From: Branchipolynoe longqiensis | Taxonomy: Eukaryota; Annelida; Polychaeta; Phyllodocida; Polynoidae | Direction of reading: 5' to 3' | Assembly (NCBI GenBank): GCA_030323885.1 | Contig: CM059193.1 | Location: forward strand, 96,464,852-96,528,851 | Length of the DNA stretch: 64,000 bases | Shown here: in pieces, positions 16,467-31,500 of the stretch | Layout: each line of letters starts with the position of its first letter | How positions within the stretch are numbered: the stretch's first letter is position 1 | Notes under the pieces: generated by a model | What the model was told of the DNA's origin: nothing | Database searches by the model: none | The model's input: the letters and a program-made list of their open reading frames with translations, nothing else | Position numbers and translations under genes: made by a program

Positions 16467-16943
16467 ACTGAACCTGGAAGTGCTTCTATGTAGATCCTAC
16501 TGAGGTATTTAATTCATAAAAATCAATCTAATGATATTAACAATAAGCATTTAAGCTCAAGATCATTTAAGCTTCAGAGCCCTGCCCCCCACTCACACAC
16601 CATACATATCGATCACCCACACCCACCACCGCCCCACACCCCCACCGCTATCAGTGTGTTATGGGTAGGAGAGTGCCACTTCTTGAAAACCTGATCAATT
16701 ACGCCTCCCTCACGACATGAGTAAGTATTGCCCTGATTGTCTCAGCACACACTACGGTCTATCACAAAACTGGTTCACTGACAGACATCAAGACAACACC
16801 ATCAACATAGAAGGATACATAAATCAACATAACAAACCAAATCAAAAAAGGTGAACGTGTTGCCATTTACTGCAAAACCTAAAAAATCTAAACACTGAGG
16901 CCCTAGAAATAGCAAACCTTTCAAATGAGCACTTGGAGCTACT

Positions 16944-19026
16944 CATCATCATCATCATGCTGTCGGTCGTGATGCGACAAAGACTGCTTTCATTACTTGA
17001 CTGCCGCTCTCCATTTAGCTCTCTGCTGTGAGAGTGATGTCCATGAGTTGGTCTTAATGTCTCTCAGCTTCATGTTTCTCTTGATGGTATCCTTGAACCA
17101 GAGACGAGGGCACCCTCTCTTTCCATAACCAGAAGACAGTTGAGAATACAGGATCTGCTTTGGTAGCCTGTCTGATGACATCCTCATGAGGTGTCCAGTC
17201 GACCGGAGATTCTTTTTGATCGGAAGATCTTCCATAGAGGGCAGCTCCGTCCATTCAAGTATTTCCTTATTTGTCACTTTGTCCTTCCAGGTTAGCCTCA
17301 TGATTGAATGCAGATGTTGCATCATGAAGGCATGCAGCTTTTTCACCTGTTGTCTGTACACAGTCCAGGCCTCAGCTCCATAGAGTCGGGTGGATAGCAC
17401 GATTGCACTGTAGATCTTGCCTTTGACCCGCATGGAAACATGGTGGTTGTTCCAGAGTCTCTGGTGTAGTTGGCCGAACGATGCGCTAGCCTTGGCCATC
17501 CTCCTCTGTATTTCAGCGTCAATGCGTCCATCACTTGATATAGTGCTTCCGAGGTAGGTGAATTCCGGAACAGAGTTCAGCTTGTTTCCGTCAACCATGA
17601 TATCCTCCTCTCGGGTTCTTGTAGAGTATGGTTGGTACAGCACCTCCGACTTCTTGATATTAATCTTCAGGCCAAACTTCTTTGATGCATCGGAGAAAGT
17701 GTCCACTATTTTCTGGATCTCTTCAGCCGAGTGGGCAGCTCTCTCACCAGTATCCAAGTCGTCTTGGTCTTCGCTCTGAAGTGTGTGACATTGAATAGGT
17801 CAGCGCTCTGTCTGGACTGTATATAGATGCCATCCCCCATGCCTTGGAAAGCCTCATCGAGCATTGCTGATAGGAAAGCCTCATCGAGCATTGCTGATAG
17901 AGCATGGGGGCGAGTACACAACCTTGCTTGACCCCATTGGTAACCCCAAATGATTCTGAGACTTCCCATCCAGCACTAACATTCGCCATCATTCCTGTAT
18001 GTAGAGCCTCAATCATAGTTGTGAACTTCTCTGGGCATCCATACTTCCTCAGTAGCTGCCATAGCCCGGTCCTCCCGACTGTATCAAACACCTTAGTGAA
18101 ATCGGCAAATACCATGTACAGTGGTCGGTCCTGCTCAATGCACTTTTCTTGGAGCTGTCGGAGTCAAAATATCATATCCACGGTGCTCTGGTTACCTCTG
18201 AAGCCACACTGTGACTCCAGAACTACATCAGGTGTTATGTGAATAGATAGTCTGTTGAGGAGGATCCTGGCAAAGATCTTGCCTGCTATGGAAAGAAGAG
18301 AGATTCCTCTATAGTTCCCAGTCTGTTTGATCACCTTTCTTGTAGATGGTTACAATGCTGTCATCATTCCATGCTTGGGGTACAGAACCCTCCTCCCAGG
18401 CATTGGTGATTAGTTGGTGCAGTCTGTTGAACATATTGTCTCCTCTGTGCTTCCATACTTCAGCAGGAATTCCATCACCCCCAAGTGCTTTGCCATCTTT
18501 CAGGCTGGCGATTGCTCTAGCCATCTCATCCATGGTTGGAATCTCATCGAGGCATGTATTGGTAATGTGCTGCTGGATATTGTCCAGAGCTTTGTGATCT
18601 ATGTCACCAGGGACATTGAGTAGCTTCTGAAAGAGTTCACTCCATCTTGCCACAACTCTCTTGCTGTCAGAAAAGGTCTCCATTCCATCTGTTGATTTCA
18701 GGTGAACAGGTCCCTTCTTCACAGGTCCCCAAACTTCCTTCAGTCCATTGTAGAAGCCCTTCATGTTGTTTTTGTCTGCAGCTCTCTGCAGCTCCTCTGC
18801 CTTCATTTCCCACCAGTCGGACTTCAGTGCAAGGGTGCATTTTTGGAGCAATCTGCAGGCATCGTTTTATGCTGCAGTGGTGGATCTAGTGTTCCTGATC
18901 TGTGACACTCTCTGGTGGGCTTGGTCTCTTCTGCTCATAAGATTCTGTAGCTCCTGATTGTTGGGGTCGAACCAGTCCTGGTGTTTTCTGTCTGGCTTGC
19001 TGAGATATGTATTAGCTGTGTTGTAT
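16944..19026 (-). mobile_element. RTE-like LINE inserted in CR1-like LINE
   Basis: Flanked by a perfect 16-bp target duplication AGCACTTGGAGCTACT (16928-16943 and 19027-19042). It is 5' truncated, lacking the endonuclease. The 3' end, at the low-coordinate side, has an (ATG)n-type tail (CATCATCATCATCATG on the plus strand). Its 3' end recurs as a tiny insertion at 24308-24448. Orientation is opposite to its LINE host. Confidence 0.88.
16993..18900 (-). pseudogene. RTE-like LINE reverse transcriptase, broken
   Basis: Reading from high to low coordinates: a pre-RT linker (ALKSDWWEMKAEELQRAADK, about 18820), early RT motifs (KDGKALGGDGIPAEVWKH, about 18500), FADFTK near 18110, GVTNGVKQGCVLAPMLY near 17940, then the C-terminal part (LGSTISSDGRIDAEIQRRMA; final codons KWRAAVK near 16995). 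At least three frames are used. A 27-bp tandem duplication (GCCTCATCGAGCATTGCTGA, 17855-17900) disrupts the frame after the GCVLAP motif. The expected catalytic YADD motif is missing: RT reading goes from ILVRE straight to AAHSAEEIQKI. The enzyme would have copied the LINE RNA at a nicked target (family knowledge). It is dead here. Confidence 0.85.
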
Positions 19027-20544
19027 AGCACTTGGAGCTACTATGGTGCCTAATAAAAAACAAGAAGCAGGCTAACATAGCCATAGAAAGCCTCTACAGG
19101 CAACCATCTGGAGATGTGGAAGCATTCCTTCAAACCAGATAAAAGCATAAGTACTGTGCGAAAATTACCAAATGCAGAAATGCTTGTGCTAGAGGATTTC
19201 AAGATAAACTGCAACAGCAACAACAAACATAACCTAATGCTACAAATGACTATCAAAATCCTAGGCCCCGAACAACCATTACAGAGAGCACAAGACTAAG
19301 CAATAATAGCTCAACAATTGATCTAATACTAACCAACCCAAACCATGCCACAAAATGGGGTACTAGAAGCTGGGGTATAAGTGACCATGAGGGAATATAT
19401 GTAACCAGGAAAAAACTCAAAATCACAAATCAATATGAGTACAAGATGGGCAGATCCCTAAAAAAATACTCAGAAGAAACACTAAAAAAACACTTACACA
19501 AAAACACAAACAACCTCAGAAAAAACAGAGATGATGCGATAGCTACTGGAAAAACATTGTCACAGATATAACAAAAATGTTAGATGAGATGTGTCCCACA
19601 AAGAAACTAAAAATACCAAAAAAACCAAGACCCATGGGTATACAATGAACTATTGACACACATTTCTTCAAGAAAGTGAAAACTGGGTGACAAAGCGAAA
19701 CATACTGACGTTTTCCACTGCACGTTCCGGTAAACTCAACGCAGTGTGCCTTCGTTATGTAGCCAAGCTGCGCGCGCATACACAACATTAGTAAACATTG
19801 AAATAGGTCTATGGGAAGGTAATCTACATGGGTGCTAACAACAAGATACTAAAAAACTGCAAATACTACAACATTGTTCCCTAACGATATGCCTAAAAGT
19901 AGACAAACCACAACCCACATATGACTTGCACAAAAGAACTAAAGTAAAGCTACTAGAAAACAGAAGAAAAATCCACCTAAAAACATTAGCATATGGATAT
20001 AGCCACAACATTAAGCATCTAACCCAACCATTAAGGAACACCAGAGCAAACAATTCACCACTACTAAGGCAGACCAGAAGCCAAATCAAAGCCCACAAGC
20101 TATGGAACACACAAACGGTGAAGGAAAGACAAATTCCTGACCTAAAAACATGCAACAAATAGCTGTGCAAAATAGAACCAGGAAACCCCAACTAAGCTGT
20201 GCCACAAGGGGGCATGTGATACGTCAGAGCCCACCAGCTAGACAGCCCATGACAGGAAAACAGGAAATATAAAAGCCAGATAACATGCACACCAACAATA
20301 TAATCAAATCAAATTCCAGGAAACATAACCCAACCACCTACTATGTACAAGCCTATAACATGTAAATAGAGTAGGCTAGAATAGAATTAAGTAGAAAAAA
20401 AGTGGAAATCTCTTCCCAAGAAAACCGCAAAACACTAACATAGATCACTAACCCAAGACATAGCTTTAAAAAAAACACAACTATAACTGCCCAGCATTGA
20501 AAACAAGCTTGATCATCAGAACTTACTTGCTAGGGACAGACATC

Positions 20545-21899: not shown

Positions 21900-22595
21900 C
21901 AAGTTTCATGAATGTCCATAGTATGTGCATACTTTTAAGTTGAATCTCCATAGTGTGTTCATACTTTTAAGTTGAATCTCCATAGTCTGTGCATACTTTT
22001 AAGTTGAATGTCCATAGTCTGTGCATACTTTTAAGTTGAATGTCCATAGTGTGTGCATACTTTTAAGTTGAATCTCCATAGTGTGTTCATACTTTTAAGT
22101 TGAATCTCCATAGTCTGTGCATACTTTTAAGTTGAATGTCCATAGTCTGTGCATACTTTTAAGTTGAATGTCCATAGTGTGTGCATACTTTTAAGTTGAA
22201 TCTCCATAGTGTGTTCATACTTTTAAGTTGAATCTCCATAGTCTGTGCATACTTTTAAGTTGAATGTCCATAGTCTGTGCATACTTTTAAGTTGAATGTC
22301 CATAGTGTGTGCATACTTTTAAGTTGAATGTCCATAGTGTGTGCATACTTTTAAGTTGAATGTCCATAGTGTGTGCATACTTTTAAGTTGAATGTCCATA
22401 GTGTGTGCATACTTTTAAGTTGAATGTCCATAGTGTGTGCATACTTTTAAGTTGAATGTCCATAGTCTGTGCATACTTTTAAGTTGAATGTCCATAGTGT
22501 GTGCATACTTTTAAGTTGAATGTCCATAGTCTGTGCATACTTTTAAGTTGAATGTCCATAGTGTTTGCATACTCTTAAGTTGAATGTCCATTGTC
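21900..22595. repeat. 32-bp minisatellite
   Basis: About 21 copies of GTCCATAGTGTGTGCATACT plus TTTAAGTTGAAT. Variants (TCTCC/GTCC, TGTTC/TGTGC, TAGTC/TAGTG) recur in a fixed order of four units, giving a 128-bp higher-order repeat in the first half. Confidence 0.95.
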
Positions 22596-23899
22596 TGCCT
22601 TACTGAAAGTGACATGACATATACATACGAAGGTTATTGTTGGTTCCTCATGTGTTTACATCGTCTGGCCTATTAATATGCTAGTCCTGTCTTAGCTAAC
22701 ACTGAGATCAATGGGTACAACTGTTGTAATGAATACTCTTTCCCAGGCTTTTATAATTCTTGTTTAACTTAGATAACTTTCAGGAACATGTATGTGTTCT
22801 GTTATTGATTAGAGTAATTCGCGTTTAGATTACCCATGTGCAAGCCTGCCTTTACCTCCTTGTTAATAAGGGTTGCATTTGTTTTAATGAGCTGCAAATT
22901 AACCTTGTGCATGTATTATGTAAATGCTCATCTAAGTATTGTTAGTGTCATGTTATCTTCTTTTTTTGCTCTTACTTTTATTTGTTGCTTCTTGCACTTT
23001 TGTATGGTGGGTTTCAACTGTTTTGTTTGTATTGATAAGTTTTATTTTGAATAGAATTAATTACCCCAAAAAACAGAACAACAAGCACTACATATCTTGA
23101 CATTGGTCGTCCATGCCTCATGCACACGTTTCGAGTTGTCAGGGTTAACGTAAGGAAGGATAGTTTCTCGTATCCCAACGTAAGCTACTTAAGTCCTTCC
23201 TTGTTGACCTTTGCCCTCCCCCTGTGATGACCTCAGCGAGCCTCGTCTGTATCATATCCGGTTGTAATGTGCGTCATATAAGGGATTCTGGTAATCACTT
23301 CTAACCTGGTGTAAAGTCTACAGCTCGAATCTGTGGTTGTGTAGGCAGGCTCTAGTGAAATCAATACAGACAAAAAGAAAGGAAGAGTATAAAGTGTGAA
23401 AGAAGAGAGAGAGTCAAGCCCTCTGGTTTATTATTTATAGGGTACATGGGTTCAGTGTAGAGTATCACCCCACCCTATTCTCCCAATGAGAAACAAGCAT
23501 TCTTAGCTCTACCAATAGGAATCCAGCATTCCTGGTCCCCATGGTTACCAGTGATCTGCCCACCACCAAGCTGTGTGGCTCCCCTGGCCACCACCTGCCT
23601 TGAGCCTGAGTGTGGTGATCCTGACTAGCAGAGGGGGGAGGGGGTAGTCTCTGAGTGCCCCTTGCACACAGCCCTGCCAGCACCACTATTTACATCTAGT
23701 CAGGCACCACCAGCACTTACATATACACATACATGTACCTGGTCACATATACCCGATCAGTAATAGTAGATTTGCATTCCCCAACGAATGCTTTGAATCG
23801 GAATAGTTTACACTGGTGTGGAAGGGTATGAGGGAGATATGCTAGGCATCCCCAAACAGTCACCGCCAATGGTATCACGATGTGCATTGCACAGATTTC
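22596..23899. other. Unassigned, no gene seen
   Basis: Unique, AT-rich sequence. A plus-strand ORF at 22836-23054 is hydrophobic and composition-driven; a minus-strand ORF at 23465-23686 has no recognised motif. Untranslated exons of the receptor gene could lie here but none can be shown. Confidence 0.5.
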
Positions 23900-25340
23900 T
23901 TTTAACCTTTTCTTATAAGTGATTATGTTCGTATTCTTGCAGGGATGGCTTGTAGAGCATGTTTTAATACTTTAGTTGGGATATTTTCTATACCACTTGG
24001 TTTATTTGTGTCTATGCTTTGTATTAGTTGTTGTAATTCTTTTGCATTAGTTTTGCAGGTGGGGATTTGATCTTTTATTTGTTCTGAATGAATTCTGTTG
24101 ATAGTTTTTGTCCCACTGATGCAAAGTGTTCATTTAGTTTGTCTGCTGCCTCTAGGTTTGTTAGTGTGCTGCCTTTCTCATTTGTGAGGAGTGCTATGCA
24201 GTCTTTAGATTTATTGTTGGGGAATAGTAGATTTACATTTGTCCATAATTTGTTTGTGTTACTACCCCATTGATCATCTTGGTCTATCATGTATTTTGTT
24301 GTTGCTGATACCATCAAGAGAAACCTGAAGCTGAGAGACATTAAGACCGACTCATGGACATCACTCTCACAGCAGAGTGCTAAATGGAGAGCAGCAGTCA
24401 AGTAATGAAAGCAGTGTTTGTCGCATCGCGACCGACACATGATGATGATGTTGCTGTTCTGACAGTTTTATGGGACGTATTGCTAGCTGTGTTGTATGTA
24501 GGCTAGTCTATCTGCTGGGGTTTTGATGCTTTTTGCCAGGTTCCCTAGTTTTCTTTTGATTTCTATCTGGGCTTTTAGCTCATTGTTCACCCATGGATCT
24601 TGTTTTTTGTTTATGTAGAGTTTTTTTGGGGCACATTTGGTTTAGTGAGGTTGTTATTTCCATAATGATATTGTTCCAGAAAATGTTAATATCAGTTTTG
24701 TTACTATTTATTTAGTTTGTTTGACTCTCTAGGTGGTTTTCTAGTGATTCTTTTGAGTAGTTTACCAGTGATCTGCCCATCTTGTATTCATATTGATTTT
24801 TGGTTTTTATTTTTGTTCTGGTTACGTATATTAGCATTAGCTTGTGGTCACTAATGCCCCAGCTTCTGGTGCCCCACTTTGTTGCATGGTTGAAGTTGGT
24901 TAGTATTAGGTCAATTGCCAAGCTATTTTCACTGAGTCTGGTATTTTCTGTGATTATCTTTTGAATGCCTATGGTTTTGATAGTGGTCTGCAGCATTAGT
25001 TTGTTTTTTTTGCATTTGAGTTGTAGTTTATATTAAAATCACCCAGAATGAAAATGTCTGCAGTCACCTGTCTTTGTTTGTTGTGTTCCATTAATGTTTT
25101 TCTGTCATTACGTACAAGCCTATACCCATCTATGTTGAGAATATTGTTGTGGTGTTTGTAAGTGTACCAGGTTTCTGACATTGTTAGTACATCAATGTCT
25201 TCATCTTTTAGGTGTAGTTTTATCAGGTCTAGTTTATTGTATGCACTCTGGCAGTTTAAGTGGGCAAAGTGTGTGCCCCTGCCTAGTCTGCATTCAATTT
25301 CCTCAACCAAGGATAAAACAGTGGATGTCGGATAATGCAA
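23900..25340 (-). pseudogene. CR1-like LINE ORF2 (endonuclease, RT start)
   Basis: The apurinic-like endonuclease begins with HLNCQSAYNKLDLIKLHL and has LTMSETWY, then FILGDFNINY (25040) and WGISDH (24850). These are the N-, E-, GDFN- and SDH-type motifs of LINE endonucleases. A deletion inside the domain joins VRNDR to a later segment at about 25110. The pre-RT linker follows (DPWVNNELKAQIEIKRKL near 24590), then QWGSNTNKLWTNVNLLF, then a reverse transcriptase start (TNKPSGIENIPTKVLKHAL) near 23990, after which the copy ends. The protein would nick target DNA and prime reverse transcription; it is broken here. Clade is by eye. Confidence 0.75.
24308..24448 (+). mobile_element. 141-bp 3' end of RTE-like LINE
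   Basis: Encodes the last codons of the family found at 16993 (MKLRDIKT-type string, KWRAAVK, stop) and ends in ATGATGATG. It is flanked by TGTTGCTG at 24300-24307 and 24449-24456, an 8-bp target duplication. It splits ORF2 of the CR1-like LINE. Confidence 0.8.
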
Positions 25341-25546: not shown

Positions 25547-26689
25547 TTAGTGTTTGATACTCAAGGTTTGTAGTTCCAGTTCTCCCCGATGCTGCGCCAT
25601 GTTGGTATCCACTTGCCTAGTATTCAGTATTTCAGGTGTGGCTGGAGTATTTTTTACATCATTTTTTAGGCTTTCCTTGATTTTTTGGAGGATTTCTCCC
25701 ATTTTATTGTTGTATCCTTGTTTAAGAATTTCCCCTTCATTTGCATTGTTTAAGAAAATGCCTGTTCCCCAATATGGGCATCTGGTGCATTCTGTGAATG
25801 CTTTGCCTGGGGCGTTTATCAATTTTTGCATTAATTGTTCGCTTTGTGTAAACTTGGCTCTGACAATGTCCTCTAGGACTTTCTCGTTTGTTTTACACCA
25901 TTCTGGTGTCCTCCACACTTTCTTTGCAATCGCCTTCTCTGTGTAGGGGCTTTCTGTGTCGTCGATGCGTCTCATTAGGTCATATTTGTCATGGAACTTG
26001 GCCATGATCGAACAGTAGTACTGTTCAACAGATGAGTATATTTTCCCATCTTTTCCTGCTATTTTACACTTGTAGAGGTTGTTGAAAGGAGAGTTGTGTC
26101 CCTGGAAGGATACAACTCTGTTTTCAACCATTCATGCTCTCTGGTAGCTGCTTTTTCAGGGTTTATTTCTTTGAATTCTATGTTATCAAATTCTTGGGGT
26201 TTGTAGCTTTTCCCATTTATCTCTATGTTGCAGCCCTTCATTTTGATTGATTGGATCTTTTTGTTTTTTGTTTCCTGCGCGAGTGTGTACATTTGCTGCA
26301 CCGTTTTTTCACTCATTCGTTTTCTGTCCTGACAGGCCTGATCGTTACCTTTTCATAGTTTTTTTTTGTCTGTAGTGTTTTCTTGTTTTGGAAGAGCTCC
26401 TTTTTGTGTGCTTCCTTTTCTAGTTGTATTCTTATACTTCGGGGTCTGTCAGTGAATTTGTTGCTGTCCGATTTGACTCGATCTGCAGTCTCCTGATTAT
26501 TTGTGTCACCTATTTCCTGTTTATTTTCCAGTTCTTCTGTTCCTTGTGTTATTTCTTTTTGTTGTCATGTTTTTTTTTCCTAGACGGTAGGCTTTTGTTA
26601 CTACCGTCCAACCAAAATTAGTGTTGGCTTTGCTTAGTATGTCATTGACTGTGGATTCTATTTTTTCGTCCTCTTTTTCAGAAACCCCA
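25547..26689 (-). pseudogene. LINE ORF1: RRM-like plus NADAR domain
   Basis: The reading uses three frames because of two indels. The N-terminal part (26689-26320) has WTVVTKAYRLGKKN, then RPRSIRIQLEKEAHKKELF and YEKVTIRPVRTENE, a pattern like the RRM and following domain of LINE ORF1 RNA-binding proteins. A linker (26316-26130) follows. Residues from about 26120 to 25600 then match the NADAR (YbiA/DUF1768) fold: VVSFQGHNSPFNNLY, YSSVEQYYCSIMAKF, AIAKKVW, DIVRAKFTQSEQL, YWGTGIF and NNKMGEILQKIKESL. NADAR proteins hydrolyse N-glycosidic bonds, in riboflavin intermediates or in ADP-ribosylated guanine in DNA (family knowledge). A role in the retrotransposon is unknown. Indels: an A run near 26575 and one near 26125, where EHEWLKTEL overlaps the NADAR frame. 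ORF2 follows on the same strand. Confidence 0.75.
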
Positions 26690-27006
26690 TTGTCCATGAT
26701 GTTCGCAACATGGGTAATTGAATGAACGAGACTGTGAATCTCAGTAGATTAGGCACTGTGGCGCCGACTATATTCTATTCTTCGAACTAATAACTTTGGC
26801 CGCTGATCGACGCGCCACCTACATGATACTTCTTGAACTCCGTATTGCGCAGTTAACTTAATTACGCAGTTAGTTTAATATCAGACTGTGGCGACACCTA
26901 TATTCGAGTTTAGAACTAGAAATGGTCGCCGATTGACCCGCCACCTGTGGGGATTTCCAGTCAAAGCCGATGACGTGGCACTGGATATCTTCACTTCGAC
27001 CAGATT
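26689..27006 (+). repeat. Ngaro-1 split direct repeat A1
   Basis: About 98% identical to 31830-32146. Differences include CAGTAG/CACTAG near 26742 and AACTCC(G/T)TA. It probably holds the promoter; no clear TATA box is visible. Confidence 0.9.
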
Positions 27007-27050: not shown

Positions 27051-28413
27051 ATGCCGCCCGTCAAGAACACGAAGGCTAAGAAATCAAAAGTAGGTAATAG
27101 TGACAATGCTGGACCTGCGAAGAAGAAGAAAACTAAGGTTGGTGCGAAGTCAGTGGCTTTATCTCCGAATTCGACGACGGAAAGGCACACTCGTTCTGGC
27201 CGAACAAAGGACCGGCGCGAGGATCGATCAGTCGATTCGGACCAAGAACAAATGGATGTTACGATCAACGACGATTCGGGATTAACCGTGGCTCTGGCTA
27301 CCATACAGAAGCAGATGGCAGAGATCAACGCTGGCATAAATTCACGTATTGATGAACTTCAGAAAAAACGCTGACAAAAGAAAATCGAGATCTCTTTCTC
27401 CCCGCCGGCGCCACCGTGATGTCACGCCACGTGATGGCGGCCATGACACCTTGCTCGGCAGATCTGATCGGGACGGATCATTCGAACCGACAAGACGGCG
27501 TTCCGGCTCGCTACAATCGGCTGGGTCTTCATGGGATGCTGGTCACAGATACCGGCGACGTTCTCGAGAAAAATCCGAGTTCGAGCCGTACTCCTACGCT
27601 GAACGGGACCGTCATACCTGCCTCGGTGCTGCAGCACACTCAGTCGACGTACTATCTCCGGGAGGGGGACGTGATGGCGAGCGGGAAGACGCAGTCAACG
27701 AGCTGTTGGTGGCGGCAGGATCGGCCTTGGGCAAGAAAAGAGGTACGAATAAAATTCTCGCTCCCCATAGATATGTAATAAGAGGTAGCAAAAATGATAA
27801 GATCAGCATGGAAGAGGCTACTTGGCCTGAGTATCTGGCGGCACTGTGCCGTATGTGCAAGGACAGAAAGCTCCCCAAAAACTGGTCACACCACGTATTT
27901 GAGCACATGCACCAGGTTCTCACTATGGCAGGAAACTGGGACTGGCATACTTGCCGACAATGGTCGGAGACCGTCTTCACAATGATTGCGGACGGTCGTC
28001 TCCCACAGGCCTGGGACGACGCGTACGCTATCAAGGACGTCCAACGCGACATCTGTGCAATTGGTACGCGCGTCGACAAACAGGCTGGTCGATACCGTCG
28101 ACAGGAGTCGGCCGCTGCTGCCACTGTGTCATCGGCGTCCGCACATGCCAGTGGTAGAGTGAGTGAATATAGTCGACCTGAATACAACAAAGAAGTCGAT
28201 GGTAAACCATGTCACGCCTGGAATATCGGTAATGACTGTGGTTTCGCCACGTCCCACGGCATTCAGCCCGAGAGGCGCTGTCACCTCTGCGCCTGGTGTG
28301 CAAATAAAAATAAGAAGGCCAATCCGCACCAAGAAAAATTGTGTCAGAACAAAAGGAGATTCCAGGAGAGGATCACCAACAATGAGAAAGGTCAAGCGAA
28401 GGATTTTCAGTAG
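27051..28413 (+). pseudogene. Ngaro-1 gag-like protein, one frameshift
   Basis: The start at 27051 (ATG CCG CCC GTC) heads a Lys-rich N-terminus; the frame ends at 27374. Reading continues from about 27366 in another frame to 28413. The switch lies at an A6 run (CAGAAAAAACGC). The middle (about 27830-28050) has WHTCRQWSETVFTMIADGRL, homologous to WATVRRYSEMVFTWIADGRL in element 2. The C-terminus has a cysteine/histidine array (PCHAW, CGF, CHLCAWC, H, C) that would make a zinc knuckle. Gag packages the RNA (family knowledge). The conserved order with element 2 supports one original reading frame. Confidence 0.75.
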
Positions 28414-28507
28414 GTGGCCGAGCTGACCCCGCTCACTCTGTCCACGTCGGTTATGCTAATGCGGGAGGTGCGACTCAGCGCACCGGTGATCGACATCGCT
28501 CATTGTA

Positions 28508-31500
28508 ATGACTCGTGAACTGGGTCAAGGAACCAAGGCGCGCGGAAATGCCTTGATTAATAGCCGGGCCGGTATCGGACCCTTATCACCAGGAGTGAAC
28601 TTTGGACTTTCACGTGCAGGCACGACTGGTGCTGAGCGAGAATGCGTTCACTCCCTGGGTGTTTCTAGTCTAGGCTTGGCTGAATCGGACAATGCTGTGC
28701 CTGTTCATACGATAGACGCTGGTAACGGTGCTGGAAGCGCTGGGATGTACGCGCCGGTCTGGCGGCCGGGAGATGGACATGAACCACTGGATCCTCCGAT
28801 TGAAGGTAGGGAGAGTGTGTCGGTATATGATTTGGGATCTAATGGGGGTGTCAGTGGTGTATCAACACGATGTGGGGACTCGCCTGATAGGCTGCTGATT
28901 GATGATCATGTTGACACAGACGACGTGGAATACGTTATTTTGAACATTAATAATGATCAGCTACCATCTTATAATCCACCCCATACCCCGGTCACGTATA
29001 GGCACATACACGATGATATCTGGCCGCACCCGGTCGATAATATATGGGCAAAACATCTAGTCTATCTTGACATTTATATGCACGTGAGGGCCGGTGCCCT
29101 ACCAAATTACATAGGCCCCAGGATACCCATACCATCGGGTTTGAACATTGGCGTATGGAGGGAGTTATTGTCCGACTATCATGATCAACAATTGCTAGAC
29201 TTTCTGGAGTACGGGTGGCCTGTAGATTATACCGGTGACCGCCCCCCAGTCGCGTCGGTGGCGAATCATTATGCTGATACGGACAGTGAGGCTCATATGG
29301 CCGAATACATTAACACCGAACTTAAGCATGGTGCCCTGGTTGGCCCATTTGACATTCCGCCGTTCCGTCCATGGACTCGGGTTAGTCCTATGATGACGCG
29401 AGAAAAGCGTGGTACGACTAGGAAGAGGGTCATCGTTGACCTGAGTTACCCAGCTGGCGCCAGCGTGAACTCCGGTATCAGGAAGGCCCAGTATCAGGGG
29501 CAGCCGTACACCTAAACGCTTCCTGGTATCATCGACTTGGCCGATGAGGTCACGCGGCTTGGAAAGGGTGCACTCATCTGGTCTGTGGATTTGGCCAGGG
29601 CGTACAGACAGCTTCGTACCTGTCCTTTGTCGACCCCGCTCCTTGGCATCACGCTCAAGAAAAAGATATACATAGATCTGGCGCCGCCGTTTGGTTGTCG
29701 CACGTCTTCAATGGCTTGTGCCCGAACAACAAACGCGGTGGTATACCTTATGAGGAAGCGCGGACATCACATTCTATGTTACCTCGACGACTTTGTCGGG
29801 GCGGCCGGAACAATGGACGAAGCGTTAAGAGCCTACCGTGACATCATTGGCCTCGCTCTACGTCTTGGCCTCGACCTTGCTACAGAGAAGTGTGTCTCGC
29901 CCAAAACGGAGGTCTCGTGGCTCGGTTTCACAGTCTCCACAGACGAAATGACTATAACAATACCACAAGATAAGCTTCAGGAGGTTATCAGGGAGTGCGA
30001 GGTGTGGAAAAAGAAGGTTCTGGCGTCTCGTAGGGAGCTCCAGCGCCTCGTCGGACGCCTACAGCATATTGCTAAATGTGTGATCGCGGCTAGGAGGTTC
30101 ATGTCGAGGATCCTTAATGCCCTAAGGAACGCACCACACAGGGGTAAGCACATCGTGCCTCCGGAGCTTGCACTCGACGTCGGCTGGTTCACACGATATG
30201 CCGCCAGGTCGAACGGACTGGTGCTTCTCCCTCCCTGTGCTCGGGAGCCTTGGGTCATTGAGTGCGACTCCTCGCTGAGGGCTGGGGGAGCGCATTCGAC
30301 TACGACCTACTACGCAGCCGAGTACTCACAGGAGGTTGGCGATAAGCAATATGGAATTGCCCAGCTCGAGGCGATGAATCTGGTTGTTGCACTGAAGCAC
30401 CTCTCCCCACATGAGGCCCATAAATACACCATCATAATAAATACAGACAATGCAACCTCACAGCAGGTGCTCAGCTCCGGGGCAGGTCGTGACCAAGTCA
30501 TATGTGCCTGCGCCCGCGAAATCTGGCTCTTTGCCGCACAAAGAAGCACGGACATTCTCGTACGACACAAACCAGGAAAAGACATCATCCTTGCTGATGC
30601 TCTGAGTCGTATGTGTTTCGACTTGCGTGCAAAGAGACTAGCACAGAAACTTGTTGCTGACGCAGGTCTGAAAATGGTCATTGTGACCCATGACAATGCT
30701 TTAACACACAACCTGTAACCTGGGATCGATATTAAACCTTTTTTTTGCCTTCTCTCCCCAGGTTACTCACAACGTCACCATCAGCGGCTTCTTGATGCCA
30801 TTAGGGCGGGGCTGGCGGTTGGGACCTGGAGGAATAAGGCAGCTCAGGCAAAGGAATACTACATCTATATGCAAGAACACCAAGCAGACCCGTTGCAACC
30901 GTCCCAGTATCATATTATGTTGTATCTATTACATCTTAAAGATCGACTTTCCTCACCGAGTGCCATATTGAACTATCTGAGTGGCGCCCGCACATGGGTC
31001 CTGTCATTTGACGGCAGGACGACTTCATTTGACACGTACCTGGTTGGCCTCCTCAAACGAGGCATTCAGAGGGAGTCACGTCATGTGCCTGTCCAGGCCC
31101 CTCCTCTGCTACCTATAGATGTTCGGAATATCATCACTTTCTCCCGGACAACTGGTCCAAATGGTCCCGTACTGGTGATAGCCACTATCATCGCATACTT
31201 CACACTCCTTCGCCAGAGCAACTTGTTTCCTAAGGTTGGCAGATCTGACCCAGATCACTATCTTCGCGCTAAGGATGTGAGGCTGACAGCAAAGGGCATC
31301 AATGTCCGAATCCGTTCATCAAAAACCCAGTACAAGTCATCGTCTCCAAGAGACATCATCGTTCCGGCGATACCTGGATCGCCCTACTGTCCGCGTCAAG
31401 CGTGGGAACAATACGTGTCCATGACACCAATTCACCCCGATGGCCCTGCCTTCCTGACGATCAACGGATCACCCCTATGTGCAACCGCGTTGCTCGACAC

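What the first reader, a model, noticed from the sequence alone, without database searches (positions are those of the whole stretch)
25547..26689. NADAR (YbiA-like) domain fused to a LINE ORF1
Directly upstream of a LINE endonuclease ORF, on the same strand, an ORF1 with an RRM-like half ends in a domain with clear NADAR motifs (SPFNNLY, VEQYYCSIMAKF, VRAKFTQ, YWGTGI). NADAR enzymes cleave N-glycosidic bonds, and some bacterial ones remove ADP-ribose from guanine in DNA in DarT-type systems (established). A retrotransposon carrying one could protect its nucleic acid from host ADP-ribosylation, or use it otherwise (inference). I do not know of a described LINE of this kind, though one may exist.
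Basis: partly seen in the sequence, partly recalled or inferred. Interest (0 to 1): 0.9.

Follow-up and report, generated by a model that had tools for sequence, protein, structure and literature searches.

The report
Jumping gene with altered NADAR enzyme
A multi-copy jumping gene (LINE) in this genome ends its predicted RNA-binding protein with a NADAR domain, a relative of enzymes that strip ADP-ribose from DNA and RNA; the domain is strongly conserved and likely acts on modified element RNA or DNA, but a lysine that a studied enzyme of this kind needs is methionine in nearly all copies read.

Summary
Window 25547-26131(-) holds a NADAR domain (PF08719, E=3.3e-17), with a broken RRM-CTD remnant upstream and broken LINE endonuclease/RT pieces downstream. 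It is a decayed copy of an abundant family with young members. Nine other copies have one continuous ORF1 (513-521 aa, stop to stop: predicted coiled coil, L1-ORF1p-like RRM+CTD, C-terminal NADAR); ORF2, where open, is 962 aa. All 42 distinct NADAR loci read have the RRM-CTD upstream, 37 the endonuclease downstream. Between two subfamilies NADAR dN/dS is 0.06.

A second, distantly related NADAR-ORF1 LINE group (B) is in the same genome; 67 relatives of A or B were found in public assemblies. Both catalytic glutamates are kept, but the lysine essential in E. coli C7 NADAR is Met in the window's group (39 of 42 loci; the 3 others are decayed) and Lys in 121 of 121 standalone NADARs. Group B keeps it (66 of 67, one Arg) but changes other contacts. 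Protection against host ADP-ribosylation is thus plausible for B, doubtful for the window's group, which looks re-tuned.

A 2025 paper notes in one sentence that ORF1s of oyster Tx1 LINEs appear to be NADAR domains. Substrate unknown.

The parts
25547..26131 (-). C-terminal part of LINE ORF1: open frame (194 aa) with the NADAR domain (profile match 25664-26098)
   Evidence: PF08719 E=3.3e-17; 72% identical over 151 aa to the NADAR of an intact copy
26134..26703 (-). decayed RRM-CTD part of the same ORF1, 5 in-frame stops; the copy is cut short at its 5' side (the coiled-coil part of ORF1 is not found)
   Evidence: tblastn of intact ORF1 residues 168-356, 45% identity; stops counted
23932..25310 (-). 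decayed ORF2: pieces of the endonuclease and of the start of the reverse transcriptase (within ORF2 residues 16-501 of 962) in several frames; the 3' half is missing
   Evidence: tblastn with the 962-aa ORF2; weak Exo_endo_phos match
26024..26026 (-). codon of the first conserved glutamate (E43 of the Phytophthora NADAR 8BAU)
   Evidence: GAA in the window; equivalence
26003..26005 (-). Met codon at the place of the essential lysine (K50 of 8BAU, K95 of E. coli C7 NADAR)
   Evidence: ATG in the window; Met in 18 of 18 group A rows and 39 of 42 loci
25790..25792 (-). codon of the second conserved glutamate (E125 of 8BAU), the YbiA-family hallmark
   Evidence: GAA in the window

Best explanation
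The window holds a decayed copy of a LINE whose ORF1 protein consists of a predicted coiled coil, an L1-ORF1p-like RRM and CTD predicted to bind the element's RNA, and a C-terminal NADAR domain that is likely an N-glycosyl hydrolase acting on ribosyl adducts of the element's RNA or cDNA. Shown here: the architecture in many copies, the linkage to an endonuclease-RT ORF2, strong purifying selection on the NADAR part, conservation of the two ribose-contacting glutamates, and loss of the lysine that a studied guanine-ADP-ribose hydrolase needs. Inferred: ORF1p coats the LINE RNA as L1 ORF1p does and so holds the NADAR domain at the RNP, where it would clear or edit adducts that would block reverse transcription. 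In the window's group the pocket is changed (K50 to Met396, Phe to His400, Asp to Arg427, Asp130 to Cys471; L031 ORF1 numbering), so its substrate is probably no longer plain guanine-ADP-ribose; in group B, which keeps the lysine, the ancestral activity may persist. Untested: any activity, substrate or binding.
Against: Met for the essential lysine in group A (18 of 18 rows; 39 of 42 loci), and Asp or Glu for R79 in 64 of 66 group B rows, argue against the known reaction, and perhaps against any catalysis. The lower dN/dS of NADAR than of RRM-CTD is not significant (NADAR as high or higher in 67 of 1000 bootstraps) and rests on one main pair of lineages. No DarT in the host genome. The LINE NADARs sit on long branches, which can join falsely. 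No expression or biochemical data.
Confidence: 0.5

Rival explanations
1. The NADAR part of group A is a pseudo-enzyme: a folded module that binds a nucleotide, ADP-ribose or a protein partner, or helps RNA binding, without catalysis.
For: The essential lysine is Met in 18 of 18 group A rows, and the Asp at D130 is Cys in 18 of 18.
Against: The two catalytic glutamates, the pocket Trp (W89) and K75 are each kept in at least 40 of 42 group A loci, which a mere scaffold would not need; dN/dS 0.06.
Confidence: 0.27
2. The NADAR domain works on small molecules: it removes NAD-derived signals or nucleotides made by host immunity, as PMC9503650 proposes for phage NADARs (passages).
For: That proposal; the acidic or neutral changes in the group B pocket.
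Against: The same paper favours macromolecular targets for the NADARs of eukaryotic RNA viruses. The domain is joined to RNA-binding parts in 42 of 42 loci, which favours an RNP-bound substrate. No host pathway was tested.
Confidence: 0.13
3. The domain processes the RNA intermediate of transposition itself (ends or caps), a reading of the one-sentence suggestion of RNA processing in the Ectocarpus paper (PMC12477816).
For: Fusion to a predicted RNA-binding ORF1.
Against: The NADARs tested are inactive on phosphate-end ADP-ribosylated RNA (PMC11833690, passages); I know of no RNA-end activity of this fold (recalled).
Confidence: 0.05
4. A host or foreign NADAR gene that happens to abut a LINE.
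For: The genome also holds standalone NADAR genes (L051, L052).
Against: The same RRM-CTD and NADAR order in 42 of 42 loci read, with EN in 37; 150 NADAR matches scored in each; the standalone genes are far from the LINE NADARs on the tree.
Confidence: 0.01

Closest known systems
NADAR-like ORF1 of Tx1 LINEs of the Pacific oyster (Repbase; mentioned in PMC12477816, passages read)
   Same: YbiA-family NADAR domain in a LINE ORF1
   Different: That paper gives one sentence and puts the oyster elements in the Tx1 clade. The ORF2 here (962 aa, EN and RT only by Pfam) looks Jockey-superfamily-like by motifs that I recall, not by a tree. The oyster sequences could not be compared here.
Gypsy elements of Ectocarpus with a NADAR domain at the N terminus of Pol (PMC12477816, passages)
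   Same: a retroelement that carries NADAR
   Different: LTR element, other position; the authors suggest acquisition by horizontal transfer
Type II LINE ORF1 (coiled coil-RRM-CTD; L1 ORF1p 2YKO/2YKP)
   Different: adds a C-terminal NADAR; the survey of 448 Jockey-superfamily elements (PMC4120745, passages and outline) lists coiled coil, RRM, CTD, CCHC, PHD, esterase and zinc finger/leucine zipper, and the word NADAR does not occur in its main text
Phytophthora nicotianae NADAR (8BAU), E. coli YbiA (2B3W), E. coli C7 DarT1-linked NADAR
NADAR domains in polyproteins of animal RNA viruses (PMC9503650, passages)
   Same: a NADAR carried by a selfish RNA-based element
   Different: not compared in sequence here

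Membership tests
NADAR superfamily (PF08719) | profile score over the curated cut-off | tested here: met
   63.7 bits (window), 64.5 to 69.5 (three group A ORF1s), cut-off 35.1
NADAR superfamily (PF08719) | YbiA-type fold | tested here: met
NADAR, YbiA subfamily | glutamate in the last strand (E125 of 8BAU) | tested here: met
   E in 16 of 17 group A and 66 of 66 group B rows; 40 of 42 group A loci
DarT1-linked guanine-ADPr hydrolase (BC4488 type) | Asp in place of that Glu; essential Lys (K95 of E. coli C7) | tested here: not met
   Glu, not Asp, at the E125 column in A and B; Lys replaced by Met in group A; group B keeps Lys
NADAR hydrolase active on guanine-ADPr | enzyme activity | not testable with these tools
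   needs an assay
Type II LINE ORF1 (L1 ORF1p-like) | RRM followed by CTD | tested here: met
Type II LINE ORF1 (L1 ORF1p-like) | N-terminal coiled coil | tested here: inconclusive
   predicted helices 49-76 and 89-131 of low confidence
LINE (non-LTR retrotransposon) | AP-like endonuclease and RT in ORF2 | tested here: met
   Exo_endo_phos 2.6e-11, RVT_1 8e-44
LINE (non-LTR retrotransposon) | A-rich 3' end | tested here: met
   A-rich tail in 6 of 6 copies inspected, with AATAAA in 5 of 6
LINE (non-LTR retrotransposon) | target-site duplication | tested here: inconclusive
   no clear duplication in the 6 copies inspected; 5' ends not certain
Jockey superfamily / Tx1 clade | place in a reverse transcriptase tree with named references | not testable with these tools
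   no labelled Jockey or Tx1 sequences at hand; the best of 15 PDB matches are L1 and R2 proteins

The most novel reading that the evidence does not exclude
A LINE lineage captured a NADAR enzyme into its RNA-binding ORF1 protein and rewired its pocket into a new kind of retrotransposon-borne ribosyl-adduct hydrolase or ADP-ribose sensor: a nucleic-acid cleaning module carried by the RNP, whose substrate differs from every NADAR studied so far.
Probability: 0.35. Interest if true: 0.82.

Novelty: new variant of a known kind. Interest (0 to 1): 0.62.

Why it matters
The physiological roles of NADARs in animals are said to be unclear (PMC11125620, passages). A many-copy retrotransposon with recently moved members that keeps a NADAR under strong selection implies that something about NAD-derived or ribosyl modification of its RNA or DNA matters for transposition. 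The natural contrast inside one genome (group B with the catalytic lysine, group A with Met) makes the question of substrate directly testable. It also adds a new module to the known set of LINE ORF1 parts.

Tried and rejected
The group B model (4-row alignment) had mean pLDDT 58 and was not used. A host gene lying beside a LINE was rejected because of the copies. Host DarT as the counterpart: none found. Target-site specificity: the 3' flanks of 6 copies differ, and no duplication was clear. Placing ORF2 in a named LINE clade could not be done with the sequences at hand; my Jockey-like reading rests on recalled motifs. Met at K50 was first counted on 12 genome copies picked for an open NADAR frame plus 5 relatives; the recount over all 42 distinct loci gave Met 39, Ile 2, Lys 1, and the three exceptions all carry a stop inside the domain. 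In one search all 207 domain rows were kept. The standalone set is the best 120 of 1543 hits, picked by words that partly come from the LINE domains, so it is not an even sample; 2 of the 120 are LINE-like (P0084, P0090) and were moved to groups A and B. In one search pairs with saturated dS gave no ratio; among close pairs group B L053/L055 gave 0.47 for NADAR from 8 changes only, and group A L037/L031 gave 0.08 from 4 changes. The tree used 63 of the 207 rows. The paper search matched 104 papers, of which 20 were listed; many seem to match a surname that begins with the same letters, and I opened one of the 20.

Full report
What is in the window. The minus strand at 25547-26131 holds a 194-aa open frame; its residues 12-156 match the NADAR profile PF08719 (E=3.3e-17). 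Upstream, 26134-26703 matches the RRM-CTD part of ORF1 of intact copies but has 5 stops, and at least one frame change separates it from the NADAR part. Downstream, 25310-23932 matches pieces of residues 16-501 of a LINE ORF2 in several frames. The copy is dead and cut at both ends.

The family. The window lies in a 1.85-Gb genome, unnamed; its own standalone NADARs are closest to animal proteins (66% to a tubeworm protein), so it is most likely an animal. A protein search with the window's domain scored 150 of 2318 candidates, and all 150 are significant. Nine fetched copies of a sister subfamily have one continuous ORF1 of 513 to 521 aa, counted stop to stop (L031-L039). ORF2 frames reach 962 aa; ORF1 and ORF2 are both fully open at one of these nine loci. 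The element is about 5.8 kb; several copies are 98-99% identical, with an A-rich end in 6 of 6 and AATAAA in 5 of 6 inspected, so it moved recently (inference). Of the 77 best ORF2 places, 53 have an open frame of 940 aa or more.

Linkage. Of 50 fetched NADAR loci, 8 repeat others, which leaves 42 distinct ones. RRM-CTD lies upstream on the same strand in 42 of 42, and the endonuclease downstream in 37 of 42; 22 of the 42 were read only about 3.5 kb wide. From the ORF2 side, 44 of 77 have a listed NADAR place; I read 2 of the other 33, and both contain the NADAR end.

A second group. A PF08719 search of the genome listed 150 matches: three hits in two standalone loci (a tandem pair, L051, and L052) and 147 others with 84 to 102 bits, above the 64 to 70 bits of the four group A proteins that I scored. 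I read five of the 147 (L053-L057): they are ORF1s of 463 to 506 aa with a C-terminal NADAR, group B (Pfam on four of them). ORF2 was read at two loci: EN and RT by Pfam at one (L061), RT by Pfam at the other (L060; its EN part was seen by eye only). The L061 ORF2 is 33% identical to the ORF2 of group A over 697 columns. ORF1s of A and B align over RRM, CTD and NADAR (hhalign probability 99.7%, E=1.4e-25, 324 columns). Relatives in public genome or metagenome assemblies: 5 of group A, and 62 from the group B search, of which 61 were counted as B and one (P0067) as a third type. All 84 LINE ORF1 rows compared share one residue fewer between E125 and W133, and the LINE rows stand on one side of a 99/99 branch from the standalone NADARs; the branches are long, so a single capture is likely but not proven.

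The pocket. Published work on E. coli C7 and Phytophthora NADAR names E88/E43, K95/K50 and D171/E125 (PMC11543638, passages and section 12): K95 is essential for efficient guanine-ADPr hydrolysis, and Arg could replace it in vitro. In one search K50 is Met in 18 of 18 group A rows, Lys in 66 and Arg in 1 of 67 group B rows, and Lys in 121 of 121 standalone rows. Over all 42 distinct group A loci it is Met in 39, Ile in 2 and Lys in 1; the three exceptions have stops inside the domain, so they are decayed. E43 is kept in 207 of 207 aligned rows and E125 in 206 of 207. Group A also has His400 for Phe (17 of 18 rows), Arg427 for Asp (17 of 18), Lys423 for R79 (18 of 18), Cys468 for Ala (18 of 18) and Cys471 for D130 (18 of 18). 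Group B has Asp or Glu for R79 in 64 of 66 rows, Asn for D130 in 62 of 66, and Phe or Tyr for W133 in 66 of 66.

Selection. Between L031 and L039, dN/dS is 0.060 for NADAR (0.024-0.112), 0.125 for RRM-CTD (0.053-0.219) and 0.25 for the N-terminal part; for ORF2, 0.105 (EN), 0.29 (between EN and RT) and 0.25 (part of RT). NADAR has the lowest ratio; its difference from RRM-CTD is not significant (67 of 1000 bootstraps).

How it most likely works. Shown: the parts, linkage, constraint and pocket changes. Inferred: ORF1p binds the LINE RNA and carries the NADAR to it, where it would remove ribosyl adducts that stall reverse transcription. NADARs do act on guanosine-ADPr in RNA (PMC11833690, passages). 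For group B that reaction is plausible; for group A the lost lysine speaks for another substrate or for binding only. No DarT-family match was found in the genome (the control search found it in 1 of 14 named genomes), so the host writer, if any, is unknown.

Prior art. In the paper searches the one paper that I found to link NADAR with LINEs is PMC12477816 (passages), which describes NADAR in Ectocarpus Gypsy elements and says in one sentence that ORF1s of several oyster Tx1 LINEs appear to be NADAR domains. One search matched 104 papers and listed 20, of which I opened this one; the narrower searches held 1 to 3 papers each. The survey of 448 Jockey-superfamily elements (PMC4120745, passages and outline) does not use the word NADAR in its main text. 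The library is open-access only. So the fusion itself is in print in brief; the architecture, selection, lost lysine and two groups were not seen in the passages read.

Verdict. Real, not chance, and not host DNA: a new variant of a known kind (type II ORF1 plus NADAR), with an unusual pocket that makes the function an open and testable question.

Noticed in passing
L051:205-1299 (+); L052:145-747 (+): Standalone NADAR genes of the same genome: one open frame of 364 aa with two NADAR domains in tandem (178.9 and 176.8 bits) and one single domain (163.5 bits), with canonical E, K, E residues.
   Followed up: partly
L031 and L039 ORF1/ORF2: Synonymous divergence is about 1.0 to 1.2 in the NADAR and RRM-CTD parts of ORF1 but 0.2 to 0.7 along ORF2, as if ORF1 and ORF2 of these subfamilies had been reshuffled by recombination.
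   Followed up: no
window 19029-20192 (+); 16756-16932 (+); 17897-18319 (-): Further ORF2 relics of related LINEs (32 to 66% identity to the group A ORF2), the first two on the strand opposite to the copy in question.
   Followed up: no
L059:2413-3126 (+): Between NADAR-ORF1 and ORF2 of one group B locus lies a 237-aa frame that by eye (recalled motif) resembles a SGNH/esterase domain; Pfam shows nothing above cut-off. It may belong to the element or to a nested one.
   Followed up: partly
window 27340-30718 (+): Another retroelement upstream: frames of 357, 341 and 400 aa, the last with RVT_1 (E=3.5e-13) and an ADALSR motif.
   Followed up: no
window 21909-22624: Minisatellite with a 32-base unit, about 20 copies.
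   Followed up: no
P0067: A third type of NADAR ORF1 (606 aa) from a public assembly: NADAR in the middle with a long C-terminal tail, Lys at K50 kept, E-to-W spacing 7.
   Followed up: partly
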